DNA from: Candidatus Saccharimonadota bacterium
Lineage (GTDB): Bacteria > Patescibacteriota > Saccharimonadia > Saccharimonadales > UBA4665
Reading direction: 5' to 3'
Assembly (NCBI GenBank): GCA_028286345.1
Contig: JAQBRT010000001.1
Coordinates: 310,001-374,000, forward strand
DNA: 64,000 nucleotides
Shown here: positions 7,268-37,377 of the stretch, piece after piece
Layout: each line of letters opens with the position of its first letter
Position numbering within the stretch: the stretch's first letter is position 1
Position numbers and translations under genes: made by a program
Notes under the pieces: generated by a model
The model's input: the letters and a program-made list of their open reading frames with translations, nothing else
What the model was told of the DNA's origin: nothing
Databases searched by the model: none

Positions 7268-10200
7268 ATGAACGTACTCAGCGACCGTATTACTCTACCA
7301 AACTTCTTTAGAGCGGCCGCGAACGCGTGCTCACACGTCACCAAGCAAAAACAGCGCTTCACGGCGCTGTTTTTTGTTGCCCTATTAATTTTCCAGGGAA
7401 TAGCAGGCTTTGAACCACTATTGGCTCATGCCAATGGCGGCACGCCAGACCCACTGAAGCAAGTTGAGAAAGCAAGTGACTTGCCACAAGCAGTCAGTAA
7501 AGCTCCAAAAACTGCAGCACAGGCTGGCAAATCGTTTAAGCCCAATGAGTCGTTCACCAAAAAGCCTGCTGATAAAACGGTGGTAAGCGAAGTCCCTACA
7601 GATGAGTACAACACAGTCACTACCTACACTGACGGCTCACAAAAGATTCACTCTAGCGCAGTGCAAGTTAATGAAAAGGACGGAAAAGGCTTTACGCCAA
7701 TTAGCCGCCGCTTAAATGAAGATGCGCTGACGACCAAAAATGCAGCTGGCCAAACGCTCGACCTAACAAAGGTTATAAAGCAAAGCGGGCAATTTACGCC
7801 AAAGTCTTTTACTGGCAAAAGCAAAGTCCGTGGTTTTAACTTCCCAACGCTAGATGGAGGGCAGGGCATTACCCTAACTTCCAATGGCAAAACAGTTACT
7901 ATCTACCCGCAAAATGCGAATGCACTTATTATTCCTACAAAGCACGAGGGTAAAAGTAATGACTACATAGTCTATGAAAACGTTTGGAAGAATGTTGACT
8001 TGCAGTACGACTATCTGGGCACTGCAATTAAAGAATCGATTGTCATTAAATCAGCCGATGCTGCCAATGAGTTTAAGTTCAAAATTGCCGGCGGAACAGT
8101 AGTCAAAAAGCCGAGTGGTAACTACAGTATTGAGGGCACCGACATCAGCATTGGCGAAGTAAAGCTGAGCCTATACAACCAAGGTGTAGTTACGGCGCCA
8201 CTCAGCGTCAGTAACGACGGCTCAAGTATCAGCGTGACACTCGACGGAAACTACCTAAAGGGCCTGAAGCCGACTGACTTTCCGGCAGTTATCGATCCCG
8301 ACTATTACGCAGGCTCACCAAGCGTCGATAATAATGGTGCAAACTACGTAAACTTTGATAACTACGGCAACCAAGTTAATTCATCCCAGGACTGGATGGA
8401 TCTTGGTTCAACCCGCTGGAGTAATGGCCAGATCCACGATTGGCACACCATTTTTCACATCCCGTACGACCAAATATTTAACCGCCAACTCGACTACGCG
8501 CAATTTAACACCGCCATGCGTTTTGACGCCCGTGCCGGCGCCGGCTCGCCATACAACTGGGACATGTGGCTGACCTGGGCACCAGCCTTTAGCTTTAACT
8601 ATGGCTGTTGCGGCGAACCAGCAGCACACGGCATCATGGGGCAGTACGGCTCAATTGACGCTACCGGCTTGTTTAACTGGATGAAAGGTAACGTTGGCAA
8701 CGGCGGCTGGATTGAGCTCTGGAGCAACGAAGGCAACGGCGCTTCCTACAAGCGGCTCGACCCGTACTCAACCGATATCGACTTTTACGTTGAAGACTAT
8801 AACTCCCAGCCAAGCGTGCCCGGCATCGTCACCCCAGCCAATGGTCAGGTGTTTGCCGACCAGCAGCCAAGCTTTCAAATGACGCCAAGTACTGACGCCA
8901 ACGGTGATCCGCTTAAGTATTGGTTCCGGGTAACCGGCTCTAATCCCGGCAACTGTTCTGCACCGGGTAACATCCTGGTTGATAGTGGCGAAATTGACTC
9001 TCTCCAGTGGACCGTTCCTGACGGCGTACTCAAAGACGGCGACAATTACTGGTTCTGCGGCTATGTCCACGACCAGGCGGAAGGGACGACACACTCAGCA
9101 GGTAACAACTTCTGGAACTGGACGGCCCCGATACCGTTTAAAGTAGACCTGCGTCTGGGCAAGGACAAAACCCAAACCTATGACGATGTTGGACCATTCA
9201 GCGTTAATTACTCCAACGGTAATGTCACCATGAGCGCTGCTTCGCACACCATGAACGCGCTAGGTGGTTCGATGGGAGTCAACTTAGAATACAACTCGCC
9301 GTATGCTAGCCGCTCCGGGTTAAACGCGGCCTACTACAACAATTCTAGCCAAAGTGGCGCGCCTGCGGTAAGCCGCGTTGACGGTAGTGTGGACTTTGAC
9401 TGGAGTACCGGCAGCCCTTCACCAAACATAGTCAATAATGATAATTTCTCTGCACGATGGACAGGCTACTTTGTGGCACCCGAGACCGGTAACTACACAT
9501 TTGGTGGTAAAAACGATGATGCCATGAAAGTCATCATCAATAACAATATTGTTTATAGCAATAACTGTTATAACTACCAGGTTTGCTGGGGCGGTACACC
9601 AGTAGCATTGCAGCAGGGCCAGGTTGTACCAATATTGGTCGATTTCACAGAAGCTACGGGACCAGCCTACGTCAGCCTCTATGCCAGCTTCAACGGCAAG
9701 CAGCAAGTTGTACCAAAAGCTTGGTTGCGTACGGAGCCAACCGTAGTCCACACTGGCAACGGCTTGACCGGCCGCTACTTTAAGCTTGAATCAACTGATC
9801 CACTAGCCATGCCGACTGATGGCCGCCAGCCATTCTTAAGCCGCAACGACACTACAGTCAATTTTGACTGGGGCGTTGGCTCACCAATCCCGGGAGCGCC
9901 ATCTGACCGCTTCGCTGTTCGTTGGACTGGCTTCATCACAGTGCCGCAAGACGACAGTTATACTTACTGCGTTGCCTCAGATGATGGCATGCGCCTATCG
10001 TTCGACAATGTTGTCTATCGTGAATCGTGGCAGGACCAAGGTGGTAACCAGTATTGTGGGGCTGCTCTAGGCTGGAAAGCTGGCGAAACTCATGCTGTAA
10101 CTCTGGAGTACTACGAAAATGGTGGTGGTGCGGCCGTTCACTTCCAAGTTGCCTACGCCAACCGCGCGGCCGATATTGTTCCAGCAACTTGGCTAACGCC

Positions 10201-13200
10201 TAGTGTTAAATCGGTGCCAGACGGCTGGACGCTTGGTATCGACCCAGACGGCAACGTCAGCTACGAAGCAATGCAAGTTGCCGGCTCGGGCAACGTCACC
10301 CTATATGACTCAACCGGTGAAAAACACCTCTACACCTGGACCGGCAGTGCCTACACACCTCCAGTCAATGAGCACGGAGTTCTGGCTCGCAACAGCGACA
10401 ATACCTACACCCTGCAAGACGATGACGGCCGAACGTACATATTTAACCAATCCGGTGTACTAATTACTGTGACGACGCCACAAGACGACCGTCAACCAGC
10501 AGCACTGCAATATACCTATGGTGGCACGCCGGCGCGGATTCAAAAGATTGTCGACGGCGTTGATACCAGCCGTACCATGTCAGTCTATTATGGTGGGGAT
10601 TCCAGCTGCCCAGCAACTGCCTCAGGTTTTGATGCCACTCCGCCTAATATGCTCTGTGCTGTTACTTCCACCGACGGAAACTACACCTACTTCCGCTACC
10701 GGGCTGGCTTCTTGGCTCGCATCGAAACGAACGGTGGTGTAGTTACCGATCTGGCCTACGACAGTCTCGGCCGCATTATCCAAGTCCGTGAACCGTTGGC
10801 TAACGATGCACTCGGTGCCGGCGTTCGGGCTATGGATGATTCTGTTACAACCCAAATTACCTATGATGCAATTGGCCGGGCGGCAACTGTGACGCTGCCA
10901 GCCGCCACTGCTGGTGCCACCCGCGGTGTCCACACCTATCAGTACACAAGGCTTCCAGATTCCAGCGGCCTCGGCACCACCGCAATGCTTGATACCAATG
11001 AGGCAATGCCGCTTGGCTACTCCCAGAAAATCGATTACGACACACTACTGCGCGAGGTAAACAGTTACGATAAGCAAGGCCTCAAAACCTATACTCAATG
11101 GGATCAATTTAAAGATCTGAGCTTGGCTACTGTTGACCCGACCGGCCTGGAAAGCACCACACTCTATAACGATGCTGACCTGCCGACGGATACATACGGC
11201 CCGGCACCAAGCGGCTGGTTTGACACCAGCACCCGCAAACCTACCACCGTTAGTGGTACCGATTACACCTCCCAAGTCCCACACACCCAGACCCAATACG
11301 ACCAAGGCATCACTGGTCTCGCTGTTACATATTTTGCCCGCAAGACACTTACAGGTGCCCCTGGCCAGCACGCAACCGGCTTCAATAATGCTCCGGCAAC
11401 CTCGATGAGTTACGCTGATGGCGTATATCCAGTTACACCAACCGATGGCTTTAGCCTCCGGGCAACTGGCAAAATCCGCCTAGCCGAAGCCGGTAACCAT
11501 ACTTTCCGCGTTGCTTCAGACGGAGGCGCCCGCCTTTACATTGACGGCAATGTTGTCGTTGATGATTGGACCGATGGCGGCGTTCGGAGCCACCCAACCG
11601 GCAATTACAATAATGTGACCGGCGGCACGCTGCACGACATTACCGTGGAGTACTACCACAGCGGTACGACTGGCCCTGGCAGTGTTCAGCTCTTTAAAAC
11701 CAGTCCAGGCGCTAGCGAATCAGGAGATTTGACCGGTATCCTTAGCCCAAATTACGCGCTGACAACTGCTACTACTGTCTACGATTCTCAGCAAGGCAAT
11801 ATTACGACAATAACCAACTACGGAAGTCGACCAGAATTTGGCCAAGCGCAGAGTGTTACCGAAGATAACGGCGGCCTCAATCTAACAACGGGCTACACAT
11901 ATGAAGCACAGGGAACGGGTAGCTATCTACGCCAAACCAGTAAGACACTACCTGGTGGCGCCAAAACGCAATATCAATATTACAGCGCAACAGATACACG
12001 TGATAACCCTTGCACCACATCGACCGAAACATACCATCAAGCAGGAATGATGAAAGGAAAGGTTCAACCAGACCCGGATGGGTCTGGTGCCCAACCATCA
12101 ATTACAAGTGAATCAATCTACGATGATAGTGGCAGGGTAGTAGCAACTCGGACCAATAGTGATGCTTGGACGTGTACGTTCTATGATGCACGAGGAAGAA
12201 TTGTCAGCACTTCAATTCCTGCTGTAAATGGACAGCCGGCCCGTACCATTACGAACAATTACTGGGTCGGGAGTAGCCCACTCGTAACATCATCAGGTGA
12301 CAGCAATGGCACGGTCACTACTGAAACAGATTTGTTTGGTCGGCCTCTGAAATACACGGATGCACGTAATAATGTGACTACCTATACCTATGATGCTGCT
12401 GGGCGCTTAATGTCACGCACAAGTCCACTCGGCTCTGAAGCGTTCACCTATGATGGCTATGATCGACTTACTGATCAGATGCTTGATGGTGCAACACTGG
12501 CACACGTAAGCTACGACGCTTACGGCCGTATATCTTCAGTTAACTATAGTGCTGGTGCACAGCAACTTTCATCTGTAAATCGGGACAATTTAGGACGCAC
12601 AAACGGCTTGACATATAAGATAGCAAACGGTCAGTCTATAAGCGATGTAATAGTTCGTAATGTCAGTGGCGATGTGGTTAGCGGTACAGAAAACGGCCTG
12701 AGCAAAACTTACGCATATGACACAGGAGGTCGACTACTTACGGCTACACTGGGAAGTAATAACTATAATTACGACTACACAGCGCCAACATCGAGCCAGT
12801 GCAGCCAAGCATCGGCTAACTTGAATGCTAACAAGGATGGAAACCGCACGAAGTACATCGTTAACGGCGCCACAGCAACTACCTATTGCTATGACCAAGC
12901 CGATCGTCTAATCAGTTCATCTGACCCAACCATTGGCACGCCCGTATATGATGCTCATGGCAACACAACTCAACTTGGCTCCCCAGGCAACTCAGTTACG
13001 GCATTTAATTACGATGCTTCGGACCGCAATACGGGCATAACTCAAACCACCACGACCCAGACCACCACGACATCTACAAAAAACAATGTTGGCCAGACAA
13101 CAACCACAGTGACCACAGTAGTCAATACTAAAAAGATAGTCTACACACGTGATGTCCAGGGGCGTCTCACGAGTCGTGTTACGTCAGGGAATACCGCTAC

Positions 13201-14236
13201 AACAACCAAAACAACCACAATTACAGGTACCACCACAAAGACCGCAACCACAACAGATACCCCCACAACTTCTTACTACGGCTACACAGGATCGGGTGAT
13301 ACCCCAGACTTTGTACTCGACTCTAGTAACGCAGTCGTAGAAAAATACCAGCAATTGCCTGGCAATGTCCTACTGACTATTCGACCAAAAGAGACAGATG
13401 CAACTAAAAAGACAGTCTACTCTTTACCAAACATCCATGGTGATATTTTTGCTACTACCACCTCAACGGGAACCCTGGGCACAACTTACTTAACCGGTCC
13501 TTTTGGCGAACAAATTGCTAATCAGGCTAAGCCAGCAAACACGCTCGCAGGTGCCTCATTCGGTTATGTCGGCCAGTATGAGAAGCTGACAGAGAGTAAC
13601 CTAACTCTCAACCCCGTACAAATGGGTGCCAGGGTTTACATACCATCCCTGGGTCGCTTCTTGCAGGTAGATCCTCAAGAGGGTGGCACTGACAATAACT
13701 ATGTGTATAGCGGTGATCCAGTAAACGAATTTGACCTCGATGGCAATGCAATACCTTGGCGTAAAATAGGTAAGGGACTAGTATTTGCCGCTGGGATTGC
13801 CGGCGCAATCGCCTGTGGCGCTAGCATTGTATGTGGCGTGGCCGTTGGGGCCGCAGCTGCGGGTGCAGCCTACGCTGCCACAAATGCAGGAACCAAGCAC
13901 TTTAAATGGAGCGCTTTGGGTAAAGAAGCGGCTATAGGTGGAGCGCTTGGCGGTGTTGCAGGGGGTGCCCAGAAACTATTCAATGCTGCAAAAGGCGGAG
14001 TCTACATCGCCCGTACGGCTACTAAACAGTTATACGTGGGGCAGACAAATAATTTTGCAATAAGAGCTGCACAGCATGCGCGCGCCGGAAAAATTGCAAG
14101 CAATTCAATGAGGGTTCAGATCCCTATTGCTAGCAAGTGGGGCAGAAATTTTGCAGAAAGATCAATTTACAATGCACTTGGTACAAAGAAAGCGCCATGG
14201 TTGGCCAATAAGATTAGGCCACCACACTGGCGATAA
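7268..14236 (+). CDS. Secreted PA14/RHS-repeat polymorphic toxin with GIY-YIG nuclease-like tip
   Basis: 2322 residues. A basic N-terminus and hydrophobic segment (about 28-55) look like a long signal peptide. Three PA14-like modules lie at about residues 680-815, 828-977 and 1347-1495 (G-x-TGYF/TGF, NYTF, DDxx patterns). YD/RHS repeats (YTYDAAGRL, FNYDASDR and others) fill about 1150-2120, interrupted by a Thr-rich tract at about 1920-2000. The RHS core closes with GRFLQVDPQEGGTDNNYVY, then a Gly/Ala-rich helix, then a C-terminal tip of about 70 residues with VYI...LYVGQTNN, R/H in RAAQHAR and Glu in FAERSIYNALG, the GIY-YIG nuclease pattern. Established RHS biology predicts a shell that encloses a variable toxin. 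Two small genes follow as likely immunity. Base composition turns more AT-rich after about 11,750. Confidence 0.88.
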   Translation: MNVLSDRITLPNFFRAAANACSHVTKQKQRFTALFFVALLIFQGIAGFEPLLAHANGGTPDPLKQVEKASDLPQAVSKAPKTAAQAGKSFKPNESFTKKPADKTVVSEVPTDEYNTVTTYTDGSQKIHSSAVQVNEKDGKGFTPISRRLNEDALTTKNAAGQTLDLTKVIKQSGQFTPKSFTGKSKVRGFNFPTLDGGQGITLTSNGKTVTIYPQNANALIIPTKHEGKSNDYIVYENVWKNVDLQYDYLGTAIKESIVIKSADAANEFKFKIAGGTVVKKPSGNYSIEGTDISIGEVKLSLYNQGVVTAPLSVSNDGSSISVTLDGNYLKGLKPTDFPAVIDPDYYAGSPSVDNNGANYVNFDNYGNQVNSSQDWMDLGSTRWSNGQIHDWHTIFHIPYDQIFNRQLDYAQFNTAMRFDARAGAGSPYNWDMWLTWAPAFSFNYGCCGEPAAHGIMGQYGSIDATGLFNWMKGNVGNGGWIELWSNEGNGASYKRLDPYSTDIDFYVEDYNSQPSVPGIVTPANGQVFADQQPSFQMTPSTDANGDPLKYWFRVTGSNPGNCSAPGNILVDSGEIDSLQWTVPDGVLKDGDNYWFCGYVHDQAEGTTHSAGNNFWNWTAPIPFKVDLRLGKDKTQTYDDVGPFSVNYSNGNVTMSAASHTMNALGGSMGVNLEYNSPYASRSGLNAAYYNNSSQSGAPAVSRVDGSVDFDWSTGSPSPNIVNNDNFSARWTGYFVAPETGNYTFGGKNDDAMKVIINNNIVYSNNCYNYQVCWGGTPVALQQGQVVPILVDFTEATGPAYVSLYASFNGKQQVVPKAWLRTEPTVVHTGNGLTGRYFKLESTDPLAMPTDGRQPFLSRNDTTVNFDWGVGSPIPGAPSDRFAVRWTGFITVPQDDSYTYCVASDDGMRLSFDNVVYRESWQDQGGNQYCGAALGWKAGETHAVTLEYYENGGGAAVHFQVAYANRAADIVPATWLTPSVKSVPDGWTLGIDPDGNVSYEAMQVAGSGNVTLYDSTGEKHLYTWTGSAYTPPVNEHGVLARNSDNTYTLQDDDGRTYIFNQSGVLITVTTPQDDRQPAALQYTYGGTPARIQKIVDGVDTSRTMSVYYGGDSSCPATASGFDATPPNMLCAVTSTDGNYTYFRYRAGFLARIETNGGVVTDLAYDSLGRIIQVREPLANDALGAGVRAMDDSVTTQITYDAIGRAATVTLPAATAGATRGVHTYQYTRLPDSSGLGTTAMLDTNEAMPLGYSQKIDYDTLLREVNSYDKQGLKTYTQWDQFKDLSLATVDPTGLESTTLYNDADLPTDTYGPAPSGWFDTSTRKPTTVSGTDYTSQVPHTQTQYDQGITGLAVTYFARKTLTGAPGQHATGFNNAPATSMSYADGVYPVTPTDGFSLRATGKIRLAEAGNHTFRVASDGGARLYIDGNVVVDDWTDGGVRSHPTGNYNNVTGGTLHDITVEYYHSGTTGPGSVQLFKTSPGASESGDLTGILSPNYALTTATTVYDSQQGNITTITNYGSRPEFGQAQSVTEDNGGLNLTTGYTYEAQGTGSYLRQTSKTLPGGAKTQYQYYSATDTRDNPCTTSTETYHQAGMMKGKVQPDPDGSGAQPSITSESIYDDSGRVVATRTNSDAWTCTFYDARGRIVSTSIPAVNGQPARTITNNYWVGSSPLVTSSGDSNGTVTTETDLFGRPLKYTDARNNVTTYTYDAAGRLMSRTSPLGSEAFTYDGYDRLTDQMLDGATLAHVSYDAYGRISSVNYSAGAQQLSSVNRDNLGRTNGLTYKIANGQSISDVIVRNVSGDVVSGTENGLSKTYAYDTGGRLLTATLGSNNYNYDYTAPTSSQCSQASANLNANKDGNRTKYIVNGATATTYCYDQADRLISSSDPTIGTPVYDAHGNTTQLGSPGNSVTAFNYDASDRNTGITQTTTTQTTTTSTKNNVGQTTTTVTTVVNTKKIVYTRDVQGRLTSRVTSGNTATTTKTTTITGTTTKTATTTDTPTTSYYGYTGSGDTPDFVLDSSNAVVEKYQQLPGNVLLTIRPKETDATKKTVYSLPNIHGDIFATTTSTGTLGTTYLTGPFGEQIANQAKPANTLAGASFGYVGQYEKLTESNLTLNPVQMGARVYIPSLGRFLQVDPQEGGTDNNYVYSGDPVNEFDLDGNAIPWRKIGKGLVFAAGIAGAIACGASIVCGVAVGAAAAGAAYAATNAGTKHFKWSALGKEAAIGGALGGVAGGAQKLFNAAKGGVYIARTATKQLYVGQTNNFAIRAAQHARAGKIASNSMRVQIPIASKWGRNFAERSIYNALGTKKAPWLANKIRPPHWR

Positions 14237-14248
14237 AGGAGACGAAGC

Positions 14249-14608
14249 ATGAACCTATTTAGTAAGTTTAAGACCTCAAAAAAGACAGACGTTTCGCAAG
14301 AATTCGTATACGATGAGGCAGTCATCATAACTTTGCATTTAGAAGACGTCACATCAGAAGACGAGATAAAAAAAGTGGAGCAACTCGAAGCACAAATCAA
14401 AGAGTTGCTCCCAGACGGTTCAGGAGTTGACGGTCACGAGTTTGGTGATAATGATTGTATTGTTTATATTTATGGCCCCTCAGCAGATAAGGTTTGGGAG
14501 AAGATAGAGCCCGCCCTAAAAAAGAGTGATTTTAACCATCCAGAAATAGAGCTACAGTACGGCTTACCCGATGATCCTAAAACAAAATCGAAAAAGTTTA
14601 GTATGTGA
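14249..14608 (+). CDS. Candidate immunity protein for the RHS toxin
   Basis: 119 residues, acidic, soluble, starting 12 bp after the toxin stop with a strong AAAGGAGACG ribosome binding site. Alternating strands and helices (VIITLHLEDV, EDEIKKVEQLEAQIKELLPD, CIVYIYGPSADKVWEKIEPAL) suggest a small alpha/beta fold. The acidic composition suits binding a basic nuclease. No named family recognised; the immunity role is inferred from position directly behind a polymorphic toxin. Confidence 0.7.
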   Translation: MNLFSKFKTSKKTDVSQEFVYDEAVIITLHLEDVTSEDEIKKVEQLEAQIKELLPDGSGVDGHEFGDNDCIVYIYGPSADKVWEKIEPALKKSDFNHPEIELQYGLPDDPKTKSKKFSM

Positions 14609-14830
14609 ATGAGTGAGGCATCTGACATGTACCCAGCAAAACACTTTTCACTATCGCTCCCACGAGGCGAAGGTCAAGATAATATACCCGAACTCCTAAA
14701 GCAGCTAGCAAAAGAACTTGAAGCCGTGGATGGCATGGAAGTTATGGACATAGTTTTTCGTAATGAAATTGACGAAGATGGTGTCGATTGGCCTAGCTTT
14801 ACGGTCTACCTGAATGACCTCCGGCAGTAG
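14609..14830 (+). CDS. Second small acidic protein behind the RHS toxin
   Basis: 73 residues, starting immediately after the preceding stop (TGAATG arrangement), so translation is likely coupled. Strongly acidic, with a helix (NIPELLKQLAKELEAVDG) and beta strands. No family recognised. It may be a second immunity protein, or an immunity gene left over from an earlier toxin tip, as is common at RHS loci. Confidence 0.6.
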   Translation: MSEASDMYPAKHFSLSLPRGEGQDNIPELLKQLAKELEAVDGMEVMDIVFRNEIDEDGVDWPSFTVYLNDLRQ

Positions 14831-14876: not shown

Positions 14877-14905
14877 TTGACATTTTTGTCAGTATGTGTT
14901 AGTAT
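14877..14905 (+). promoter_or_regulatory. Near-consensus promoter in front of a short terminated RNA
   Basis: TTGACA at 14877-14882, exactly 17-nt spacer, TAGTAT at 14900-14905. No reading frame of use starts close downstream; an intrinsic terminator follows about 70-90 nt later, so the product is probably a small RNA or an attenuated leader. Confidence 0.75.
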
Positions 14906-14911
14906 TAGGGC

Positions 14912-15003
14912 ATCCTTGTTAACGGGTGGGAGGCAGTTAAGCCCGTTACGGACATTTACAGTGGTGGTCTAGTCGTCAGCGCAGCAATGTGCTGGCTTTT
15001 TTG
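14912..15003 (+). ncRNA. Candidate ~90-nt RNA or attenuated leader
   Basis: Runs from the predicted start of the 14877 promoter to the T-tract of the terminator at 14978-15003. It contains a 7-bp hairpin TAACGGG/CCCGTTA around a GTGGGAGGC-containing loop (about 14920-14949). It could be an independent small RNA or a leader that controls read-through to the 15486 gene 480 nt further on. The GTGGGAGGC motif is reminiscent of rRNA-mimic ribosomal-protein leaders, but no ribosomal protein gene follows. Family not recognised. Confidence 0.45.
14978..15003 (+). terminator. Intrinsic terminator of the short RNA
   Basis: AGC plus CAGCA pairs with TGCTG plus GCT around an ATG loop (one bulged G), followed directly by six T. 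This lies about 70 nt after the predicted transcription start. Confidence 0.7.
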
Positions 15004-19726: not shown

Positions 19727-19801
19727 GGCCCCTTCGTCTATCGGTTAGGACATCAGGTTTTCATCCTGGTAAGAGGAGTTCGACTCTCCTAGGGGTCACC
19801 A
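19727..19801 (+). tRNA. tRNA-Glu (anticodon TTC)
   Basis: Full cloverleaf: acceptor GGCCCCT/AGGGGTC, D arm GTCTATCGGTTAGGAC, anticodon stem TCAGG/CCTGG with loop TTTTCAT (anticodon TTC), T arm AGGAG-TTCGACT-CTCCT, discriminator A and encoded CCA. Its 3' half is the attachment site of the element that follows: the integrase stop codon lies inside the tRNA on the other strand. Confidence 0.97.
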
Positions 19802-21508: not shown

Positions 21509-21867
21509 AGTGTCATAATGACCCTTCTTGCTCGTTCCCGTCCAATCACTCTCGACGCGGGTTTATTATCTGTTTTCAGACGAACTTACAAAGTATGGTT
21601 AATGAACCTTATAGGCGAATGTAACCTAATTATACCATCGTGTGCGTATTGCTGCTTTCTCTAAGGTATAATCAAGGACAAGTCGTTCATTCGACCCACG
21701 ACCTAAACTCGTAAGGGCATGGTCATCAAATCTACATGGAAATAATAAGCTCGTCGTCAGAGCGCTATTTCCATGTAGTTGCATTCCGAAAGGTTTGTAG
21801 GTGGCTTCGGCCATCGCTGGCGGCGAGCTTTTTGGTTGCCGCCGATATTACATAAATAGGAGATGGC
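21509..21867. other. Non-coding stretch of the element with inverted repeats
   Basis: About 360 bp without a convincing gene. It holds the 13-bp inverted repeat at 21732-21778, a GGCGGC/GCCGCC hairpin at about 21820-21846 and a TATAAT box at about 21666. It is the divergent control region between the integrase side and the cargo side. Confidence 0.5.
21732..21778. repeat. Perfect 13-bp inverted repeat
   Basis: CTACATGGAAATA (21732-21744) and its exact complement (21766-21778), 21-nt loop. No T-tract follows on either strand. It may be an operator, an RNA hairpin, or part of the recombination machinery. Confidence 0.7.
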
Positions 21868-36991: not shown

Positions 36992-37377
36992 GGGGCTGAC
37001 TTTAAGCTTGACGTTGGACTTTATCGGTTAGATCAGCAGGTCGCTTGTCAGCGTATAGGCACACCTTTACAGATGCAAATCTTAAAGATTCACTGTTAGC
37101 TCGCTTTGGTAACTTCCAAATGCCAGCTGCAGTACCAGTTTTAGCTTAATTGCTAATTCCGTGTCGCGCATGATGCCTGATAGTGCAAAGACACGCTATA
37201 TCTTCAGGACGCTCAGTTAGAATTATCCTAGCTAGCTGCTAAGACTTTAGGATTGCTGGAATGAGATGTTTGTTCGTTTCGATACTCGTTCCCTAAGAAA
37301 GCAAAACGAACTATGCCTGTAGACGACTAACCAAGATAAACCGGCGGACGCGGGGGCAGTGCCCGCCAGCTCCTCCA
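36992..37377 (+). ncRNA. ssrA: tmRNA (transfer-messenger RNA)
   Basis: The 5' end GGGGCTGA...GCTTGACG and the 3' end GGCGGACGCGGG...CCCGCCAGCTCC are the tRNA-like half, with acceptor GGGGCUG/CAGCUCC carrying the G3-U70 pair recognised by alanyl-tRNA synthetase. The tag frame starts at GCA 37075 and ends with TAA 37147-37149; the peptide begins ANLKDSLL and ends AVPVLA, 24 residues. Oddities: the seven-base T loop reads GGCAGTG in place of the usual TTCRANT, and the base before CCA is T in place of A. It rescues stalled ribosomes with SmpB. Confidence 0.93.

What the first reader, a model, noticed from the sequence alone, without database searches (positions are those of the whole stretch)
7268..14830. 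Secreted RHS/PA14 polymorphic toxin with GIY-YIG nuclease-like tip and two candidate immunity genes
Seen: signal peptide, three PA14 modules, YD repeats, RHS closing motif, Gly/Ala-rich helix and a C-terminal VYI...LYVG...R...E pattern, followed at 12 bp and 0 bp by two small acidic genes. Established: RHS/YD proteins encase a variable C-terminal toxin released by self-cleavage; GIY-YIG domains are nucleases found as toxin tips. Inference: contact weapon or host-interaction protein of an ultrasmall epibiont, where PA14 modules bind host-wall glycans.
Basis: partly seen in the sequence, partly recalled or inferred. Interest (0 to 1): 0.78.

Follow-up and report, generated by a model that had tools for sequence, protein, structure and literature searches.

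The report
Saccharibacterial toxin with DNA-cutting tip
An ultrasmall bacterium (Saccharibacteria) carries a large secreted interbacterial toxin of a known kind, ending in a GIY-YIG nuclease, and the small gene right behind it is most likely its antidote, because the same nuclease-antidote pair also occurs on quite different toxins of Actinobacteria, the phylum that hosts cultured Saccharibacteria.

Summary
One intact gene (7268-14236, 2322 aa) has a signal-peptide-like N-terminus, three PA14 domains, RHS/YD repeats, an RHS core, a hydrophobic Gly/Ala segment and a GIY-YIG tip; two acidic genes follow at 12 and 0 bp. The GIY-YIG reading is supported by Pfam, by all five catalytic residues invariant across relatives, and by a model whose best structural matches are I-TevI and UvrC. 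The locus is a polymorphic toxin: the chassis occurs in 20 of 393 genomes of the order, homology stops abruptly at the core motif, and about 20 mostly unrelated tips follow, with different downstream genes. Only one other genome has this tip, with a relative of the 119-aa gene at +3 bp. The same tip-plus-119-aa pair follows a different HINT-containing RHS chassis in Amorphoplanes and Actinophytocola. So the 119-aa protein is very probably the cognate immunity protein, in a family absent from Pfam and NCBIfam. The 73-aa gene is not part of this module. RHS/PA14 toxins in Saccharibacteria (Starr 2018) and GIY-YIG "Tox-URI1" tips (Zhang 2012) are already published. This is a new member of a known kind with a new immunity family; its target is unknown.

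The parts
7268..14236 (+). Secreted PA14/RHS polymorphic toxin, 2322 aa, intact
   Evidence: relatives with the same chassis core in 20 of 393 order genomes
7349..7435 (+). Signal-peptide-like hydrophobic segment (about residues 28-56)
   Evidence: Hydropathy; not tested with a dedicated predictor
9308..9682 (+). First PA14 domain (residues 681-805)
   Evidence: Pfam PF07691
9836..10204 (+). Second PA14 domain (residues 857-979)
   Evidence: phmmer to solved PA14 chain 6qdi, E 4.5e-31; Pfam counts three PA14 stretches
11453..11689 (+). Third PA14 region (match at residues 1396-1474)
   Evidence: Pfam counts three stretches; phmmer match to 6m8m at 1396-1474
12329..12436 (+). Best RHS/YD repeat (residues 1688-1723) of the repeat shell
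   Evidence: Pfam PF05593, six stretches in the protein; own-genome scan
13499..13744 (+). RHS-associated core (residues 2078-2159), with two conserved Asp: D2135 (28/28) and D2156 (27/28)
   Evidence: TIGR03696; conservation and abrupt end of homology after 2159
13763..13885 (+). Hydrophobic Gly/Ala-rich segment (residues 2166-2206), possible membrane-crossing segment
   Evidence: Hydropathy
13991..14233 (+). GIY-YIG nuclease tip (residues 2242-2322); Y2246, Y2256-V-G2258, R2266, E2297, N2314
14249..14608 (+). Cognate immunity protein (119 aa, acidic, predicted ferredoxin-like beta-alpha-beta-beta-alpha-beta-beta)
   Evidence: Relative directly behind the same tip in L025, L028 and L029; model
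14609..14830 (+). 73-aa acidic protein, function unknown, not part of the conserved tip-immunity pair
14975..14996 (+). Terminator-like stem (9 pairs, T6 tail) 145 nt behind the operon; a promoter-like site at 14877-14905 lies between, so it may belong to another transcript
   Evidence: consensus match only (number of terminator-like sites equals that in shuffles)

Best explanation
A Sec-secreted, single-gene polymorphic toxin of the RHS kind (WapA-like logistics) in a Saccharibacterium. Shown by sequence: conserved PA14/RHS chassis, interchangeable tip, GIY-YIG fold with complete active site, and a 119-aa gene that travels with this tip. Inferred: the protein leaves through Sec, PA14 domains hold it at the cell surface or on a target, the YD shell encloses the tip, aspartyl-type cleavage near D2156-G2159 frees it, the Gly/Ala helix helps it cross the target membrane, and the basic nuclease cuts nucleic acid (probably DNA) in the target's cytoplasm. 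The 119-aa acidic protein stays in the producer's cytoplasm and protects it and its kin by binding the tip. Likely targets are neighbouring bacteria: rival epibionts or actinobacteria.
For: (1) Domains. (2) Tip: alignment of five tips has the Tyr, YVG, Arg, Glu and Asn invariant; the model is beta-beta-alpha-beta-alpha; ten of Foldseek's top eleven rows are I-TevI and UvrC GIY-YIG domains (prob 0.77-1.00, though no E below 0.001); VIA-align Z 7.7 to I-TevI. (3) Tip swapping: chassis core in 20/393 order genomes; conservation is 27/28 at D2156 and 27/27 at G2159, and by 2168 only 2 sequences still align; about 20 mostly unrelated tips, the window tip matching only L025; G018 shows an array of partial cores with displaced tips and small genes. 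(4) Immunity: 119-aa relative directly behind the tip in L025 (+3 bp, 42% identity), and at about +41 to +70 bp behind the tip on a different, PT-HINT-containing chassis in L028 and L029. In the family and phylum searches the only strong relatives of the 119-aa gene are in the two genomes that carry the tip. (5) Other chassis relatives fit the same scheme: Imm8-like gene behind the L027 toxin (25.1 bits, cut-off 27), a microbial ribonuclease tip in L053. (6) Opposite charges of tip (+15) and 119-aa protein (-10).
Against: No activity, cleavage, delivery or binding was tested. The window tip's Pfam score is just under the curated cut-off (those of L025, L028 and L029 are above). The canonical RHS cleavage letters DPxGL are not kept (DPQEG and DLDGN), so autocleavage is plausible, not shown. 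The 119-aa family also occurs as solitary genes in Actinobacteria (between rsgA-like and hisN-like genes), so it is not exclusively an immunity family; two of six tip-bearing RHS loci (L030, L102) have another small gene behind the tip. Structure matches of the 119-aa model are only generic ferredoxin-like folds.
Confidence: 0.85

Rival explanations
1. The protein is a host-directed factor: it is used on the actinobacterial host to obtain nutrients or to manage attachment, and the immunity gene only avoids self-damage.
For: PA14 domains; the same tip and immunity family occur in Actinobacteria, the phylum that hosts cultured Saccharibacteria (general knowledge).
Against: Tip variety and changing partner genes fit conflict between relatives; a toxic nuclease would harm the host the cell lives on; the chassis is missing from most of the order (20/393), so it is not needed for the epibiont life style. 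The host of this strain is unknown.
Confidence: 0.2
2. Both downstream genes are cognate immunity proteins (double immunity).
For: 0-bp spacing, same strand, both strongly acidic.
Against: The 73-aa gene is absent beside the same tip in L025, L028 and L029; its distant relatives are lone actinobacterial genes away from toxins.
Confidence: 0.12
3. The tip is inactive or is not a toxin (a relic of a homing nuclease fused to an adhesin).
For: Short domain (about 80 aa), Pfam score just under cut-off.
Against: All catalytic positions invariant in five tips from two phyla; partner gene kept next to it on two different chassis; gene intact.
Confidence: 0.05

Closest known systems
Saccharibacterial RHS/YD/PA14 polymorphic toxin of T. 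rhizospherense (Starr et al. 2018, PMC6031116; probably the 2486-aa ORF in L027/CP025011)
   Same: Same chassis (42% identity over 1646 aa), YD repeats and PA14 as published, small immunity gene behind
   Different: Unrelated tip and partner (Imm8-like)
Tox-URI1 (GIY-YIG/URI) polymorphic toxins (Zhang et al. 2012, PMC3482391)
   Same: URI/GIY-YIG tip on RHS repeats with adjacent immunity gene; key residues Y, YxG, R, E, N
   Different: Published partners are Imm14, Imm26, Imm44, Imm51; this partner matches none in Pfam
Bacillus WapA/WapI
   Same: Secretion signal, YD-repeat body, C-terminal toxin, immunity gene; contact-dependent killing (PMC5566331)
   Different: WapA tip is a tRNase; here GIY-YIG. 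PA14 set here; delivery here not tested
T6SS Rhs effectors such as Photorhabdus Rhs1 (PMC8636562)
   Same: YD shell, conserved core with catalytic Asp, variable tip
   Different: No PAAR/T6SS part in the Pfam/NCBIfam scans of this protein; cleavage motif letters differ
HINT-RHS-GIY-YIG toxins of Amorphoplanes and Actinophytocola (L028, L029)
   Same: Homologous tip and homologous downstream immunity gene
   Different: SpvB/RHS/PT-HINT chassis without PA14

Membership tests
RHS/YD polymorphic toxin | YD/RHS repeats and RHS-associated core | tested here: met
RHS/YD polymorphic toxin | C-terminal tip varies between relatives with sharp end of homology at the core | tested here: met
RHS/YD polymorphic toxin | Small immunity gene directly downstream, changing with the tip | tested here: met
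   Position and change with the tip; immunity function itself not tested
RHS/YD polymorphic toxin | Aspartyl autocleavage motif (two DPxGL-type motifs) | tested here: inconclusive
   D2135 28/28 and D2156 27/28 conserved, but letters are DPQEG and DLDGN (motif from PMC8636562)
RHS/YD polymorphic toxin | Toxic tip neutralised by immunity protein | not testable with these tools
   Needs expression assay
GIY-YIG (URI) nuclease | Sequence profile | tested here: inconclusive
   E 3.1e-4, 21.4 bits against cut-off 22.6; relatives L025, L028, L029 above cut-off
GIY-YIG (URI) nuclease | Catalytic Tyr, YxG, Arg, Glu, Asn | tested here: met
   Invariant in five tips; positions checked
GIY-YIG (URI) nuclease | Fold of I-TevI/UvrC N-domain | tested here: met
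   core pLDDT about 80, no Foldseek E below 0.001
Tox-URI1 with known immunity Imm14/26/44/51 | Partner belongs to one of these families | tested here: not met
   No Pfam family for any of five members at E up to 1 except one chance hit; a Methylosinus relative lies beside an Imm26 gene
WapA-type secreted toxin | N-terminal secretion signal | tested here: inconclusive
   Hydropathy only
WapA-type secreted toxin | Contact-dependent inhibition of neighbours | not testable with these tools
   Needs competition assay

The most novel reading that the evidence does not exclude
Saccharibacteria and Actinobacteria draw on a common toxin-immunity currency: the GIY-YIG tip and its immunity gene moved between epibiont and host phyla, and the solitary immunity-family genes of Actinobacteria protect some hosts against such toxins, so that the gene helps set host range or excludes rival epibionts.
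Probability: 0.12. Interest if true: 0.75.

Novelty: new member of a known kind. Interest (0 to 1): 0.42.

Why it matters
It gives a concrete, testable toxin-immunity pair from a genome-reduced epibiont, adds an immunity family that Pfam and NCBIfam lack, and shows the pair on unrelated chassis in two phyla. It offers a handle on whether Saccharibacteria fight one another, their hosts' rivals, or their hosts.

Tried and rejected
PADLOC: nothing for the three proteins. Plasmid tblastn with the tip: no match. Viral contigs: no relative of the 119-aa or 73-aa protein; one stand-alone GIY-YIG protein in a viral contig (L107). Weak GIY-YIG hits across the order (about E 1e-5, mostly short frames) look like ordinary small GIY-YIG or UvrC-type proteins and were set aside. 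The 119-aa and 73-aa proteins are not detectably related to one another. Fold search of the 119-aa model gave only generic ferredoxin-like matches, so no function was read from it. Tree of the 119-aa family: nine actinobacterial rows found away from this tip separate (97/98) from the tip-linked ones and the two saccharibacterial rows pair (99/99), but the direction of transfer cannot be read.

Full report
What is there. The gene at 7268-14236 is a single intact reading frame of 2322 codons, followed on the same strand by frames of 119 aa (12 bp later) and 73 aa (0 bp). Pfam finds three PA14 stretches, six RHS repeats and a GIY-YIG domain at 2242-2282; NCBIfam finds the RHS-associated core at 2078-2159. 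Only two stretches are strongly hydrophobic: residues 28-55, as in a signal peptide, and 2166-2206 between core and tip. RHS repeats were found in no other gene of the genome (0.9 Mb), and the closest relatives found are named Candidatus Saccharibacteria.

The tip. Alignment of this tip with four relatives from Saccharibacteria and Actinobacteria leaves 18 invariant columns, among them the Tyr of the first motif (Y2246), the YVG motif (2256-2258), R2266, E2297 and N2314. From my knowledge of I-TevI and UvrC, these are the catalytic positions of the GIY-YIG family. The model made from these five sequences has the order strand-strand-helix-strand-helix (core pLDDT about 80), and the top structural matches are I-TevI and UvrC N-domains (Foldseek; Z 7.7 and 6.2). 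The fold assignment rests on all three lines together, since each is modest alone.

Polymorphism. The core region was sought in 393 genomes of the order: 20 have it. Aligned to the window core, conservation is nearly complete up to D2156-G2159 and gone within ten residues, although those relatives continue for about 95-195 residues. About 20 different tips follow; pairwise BLAST of their last 100 residues links only a few, and the window tip only to L025. Genes directly behind differ with the tip. One genome (G018) holds several partial cores with tips and small genes in a row, like the displaced cassettes known from RHS loci.

The immunity gene. The 119-aa protein has no Pfam or NCBIfam match. 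A relative (42% identity) lies 3 bp behind the same tip in L025 (Saccharibacteria UBA1050, another family of the order). More tellingly, relatives of about 30% identity lie directly behind the homologous tip in Amorphoplanes auranticolor (L028) and Actinophytocola gossypii (L029), whose chassis is SpvB/RHS/PT-HINT without PA14. The L028 copy has no common start codon near the expected start and was read from a CTG behind an AGGAGG, which is my reading. Two further tip loci have other small genes behind: a DUF4259 protein in L030 and a 149-aa protein in L102. So four of six tip-bearing RHS loci examined have this family as the next gene. The family occurs in 10 of 299 genomes of the Amorphoplanes order, and among Saccharibacteria only the two tip carriers have strong matches. 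This makes chance adjacency very unlikely. A Methylosinus plasmid copy lies beside an Imm26 gene, with RHS genes nearby; Imm26 is a published partner of Tox-URI1 (PMC3482391). The model of the 119-aa protein is confident (mean pLDDT 82) and ferredoxin-like. Caution: the family is also found away from toxins in Actinobacteria, in several genomes between homologues of rsgA and hisN (gene names are my reading of the translations), and a tree separates most of these from the tip-linked ones.

The second small gene. The 73-aa protein has no relative at the other three tip-immunity loci. Distant relatives are lone actinobacterial genes (39% in three genomes, 35% in a fourth, 44% on a Tsukamurella plasmid). 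It may be a second or orphan immunity gene, or unrelated; nothing here ties it to this tip.

Mechanism. Shown: architecture, tip fold and active-site residues, tip exchange, pairing with the 119-aa gene. Inferred: Sec export, surface or target binding by PA14, enclosure by the YD shell, release by Asp-dependent cleavage, membrane passage by the hydrophobic segment, nucleic-acid cleavage, neutralisation by binding. On cleavage: D2135 and D2156 are conserved in 28/28 and 27/28 relatives, but the letters of the DPxGL motif described for Photorhabdus Rhs1 (PMC8636562) are not kept.

What is known already. Zhang et al. 2012 described URI (GIY-YIG) toxin tips on RHS repeats. Starr et al. 2018 described a 2487-aa RHS/YD/PA14 toxin with immunity gene in a Saccharibacterium, which is probably the L027 relative. 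WapA of Bacillus is the best-studied secreted YD toxin, acting on contact (PMC5566331). New here, as far as these searches reach, are the immunity family and its sharing across phyla. In the held library no other paper joins Saccharibacteria with polymorphic toxins; subscription papers are mostly not in it.

Verdict. A good, well-read observation of a known kind of system. Interest is moderate, and rises if the sharing between epibiont and host phyla proves functional.

Noticed in passing
L094, L097, L098, L100 (about 1440-1840): Relatives of the 119-aa protein lie between rsgA-like and hisN-like genes in several actinobacterial genomes: a conserved, unnamed, stand-alone protein family.
   Followed up: partly
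L018 (G018 contig 108, 900-5800): Array of truncated RHS cores, each with a different tip and small gene: a store of displaced toxin cassettes in a Saccharibacterium.
   Followed up: partly
L053: A saccharibacterial RHS tip matches the microbial ribonuclease family (Pfam PF00545, E 1.8e-9).
   Followed up: no
L021 (13400-19000): Second kind of RHS gene with several short core copies, interspersed with small genes that look like membrane proteins.
   Followed up: no
window 14877-14998: Promoter-like TTGACA-17-TAGTAT followed about 70 bases later by a terminator-like stem with a T6 tail: may encode a small RNA or a leader of the next genes.
   Followed up: no
window 21700-21815: LOOT RNA (Rfam RF03000, 69 bits); also tmRNA at 36992-37377 and tRNA at 19727-19798.
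   Followed up: no
L107 (577-897): Small stand-alone GIY-YIG protein in a viral contig near an HNH-like gene and large genes that look like terminase and portal, distantly like this tip.
   Followed up: no
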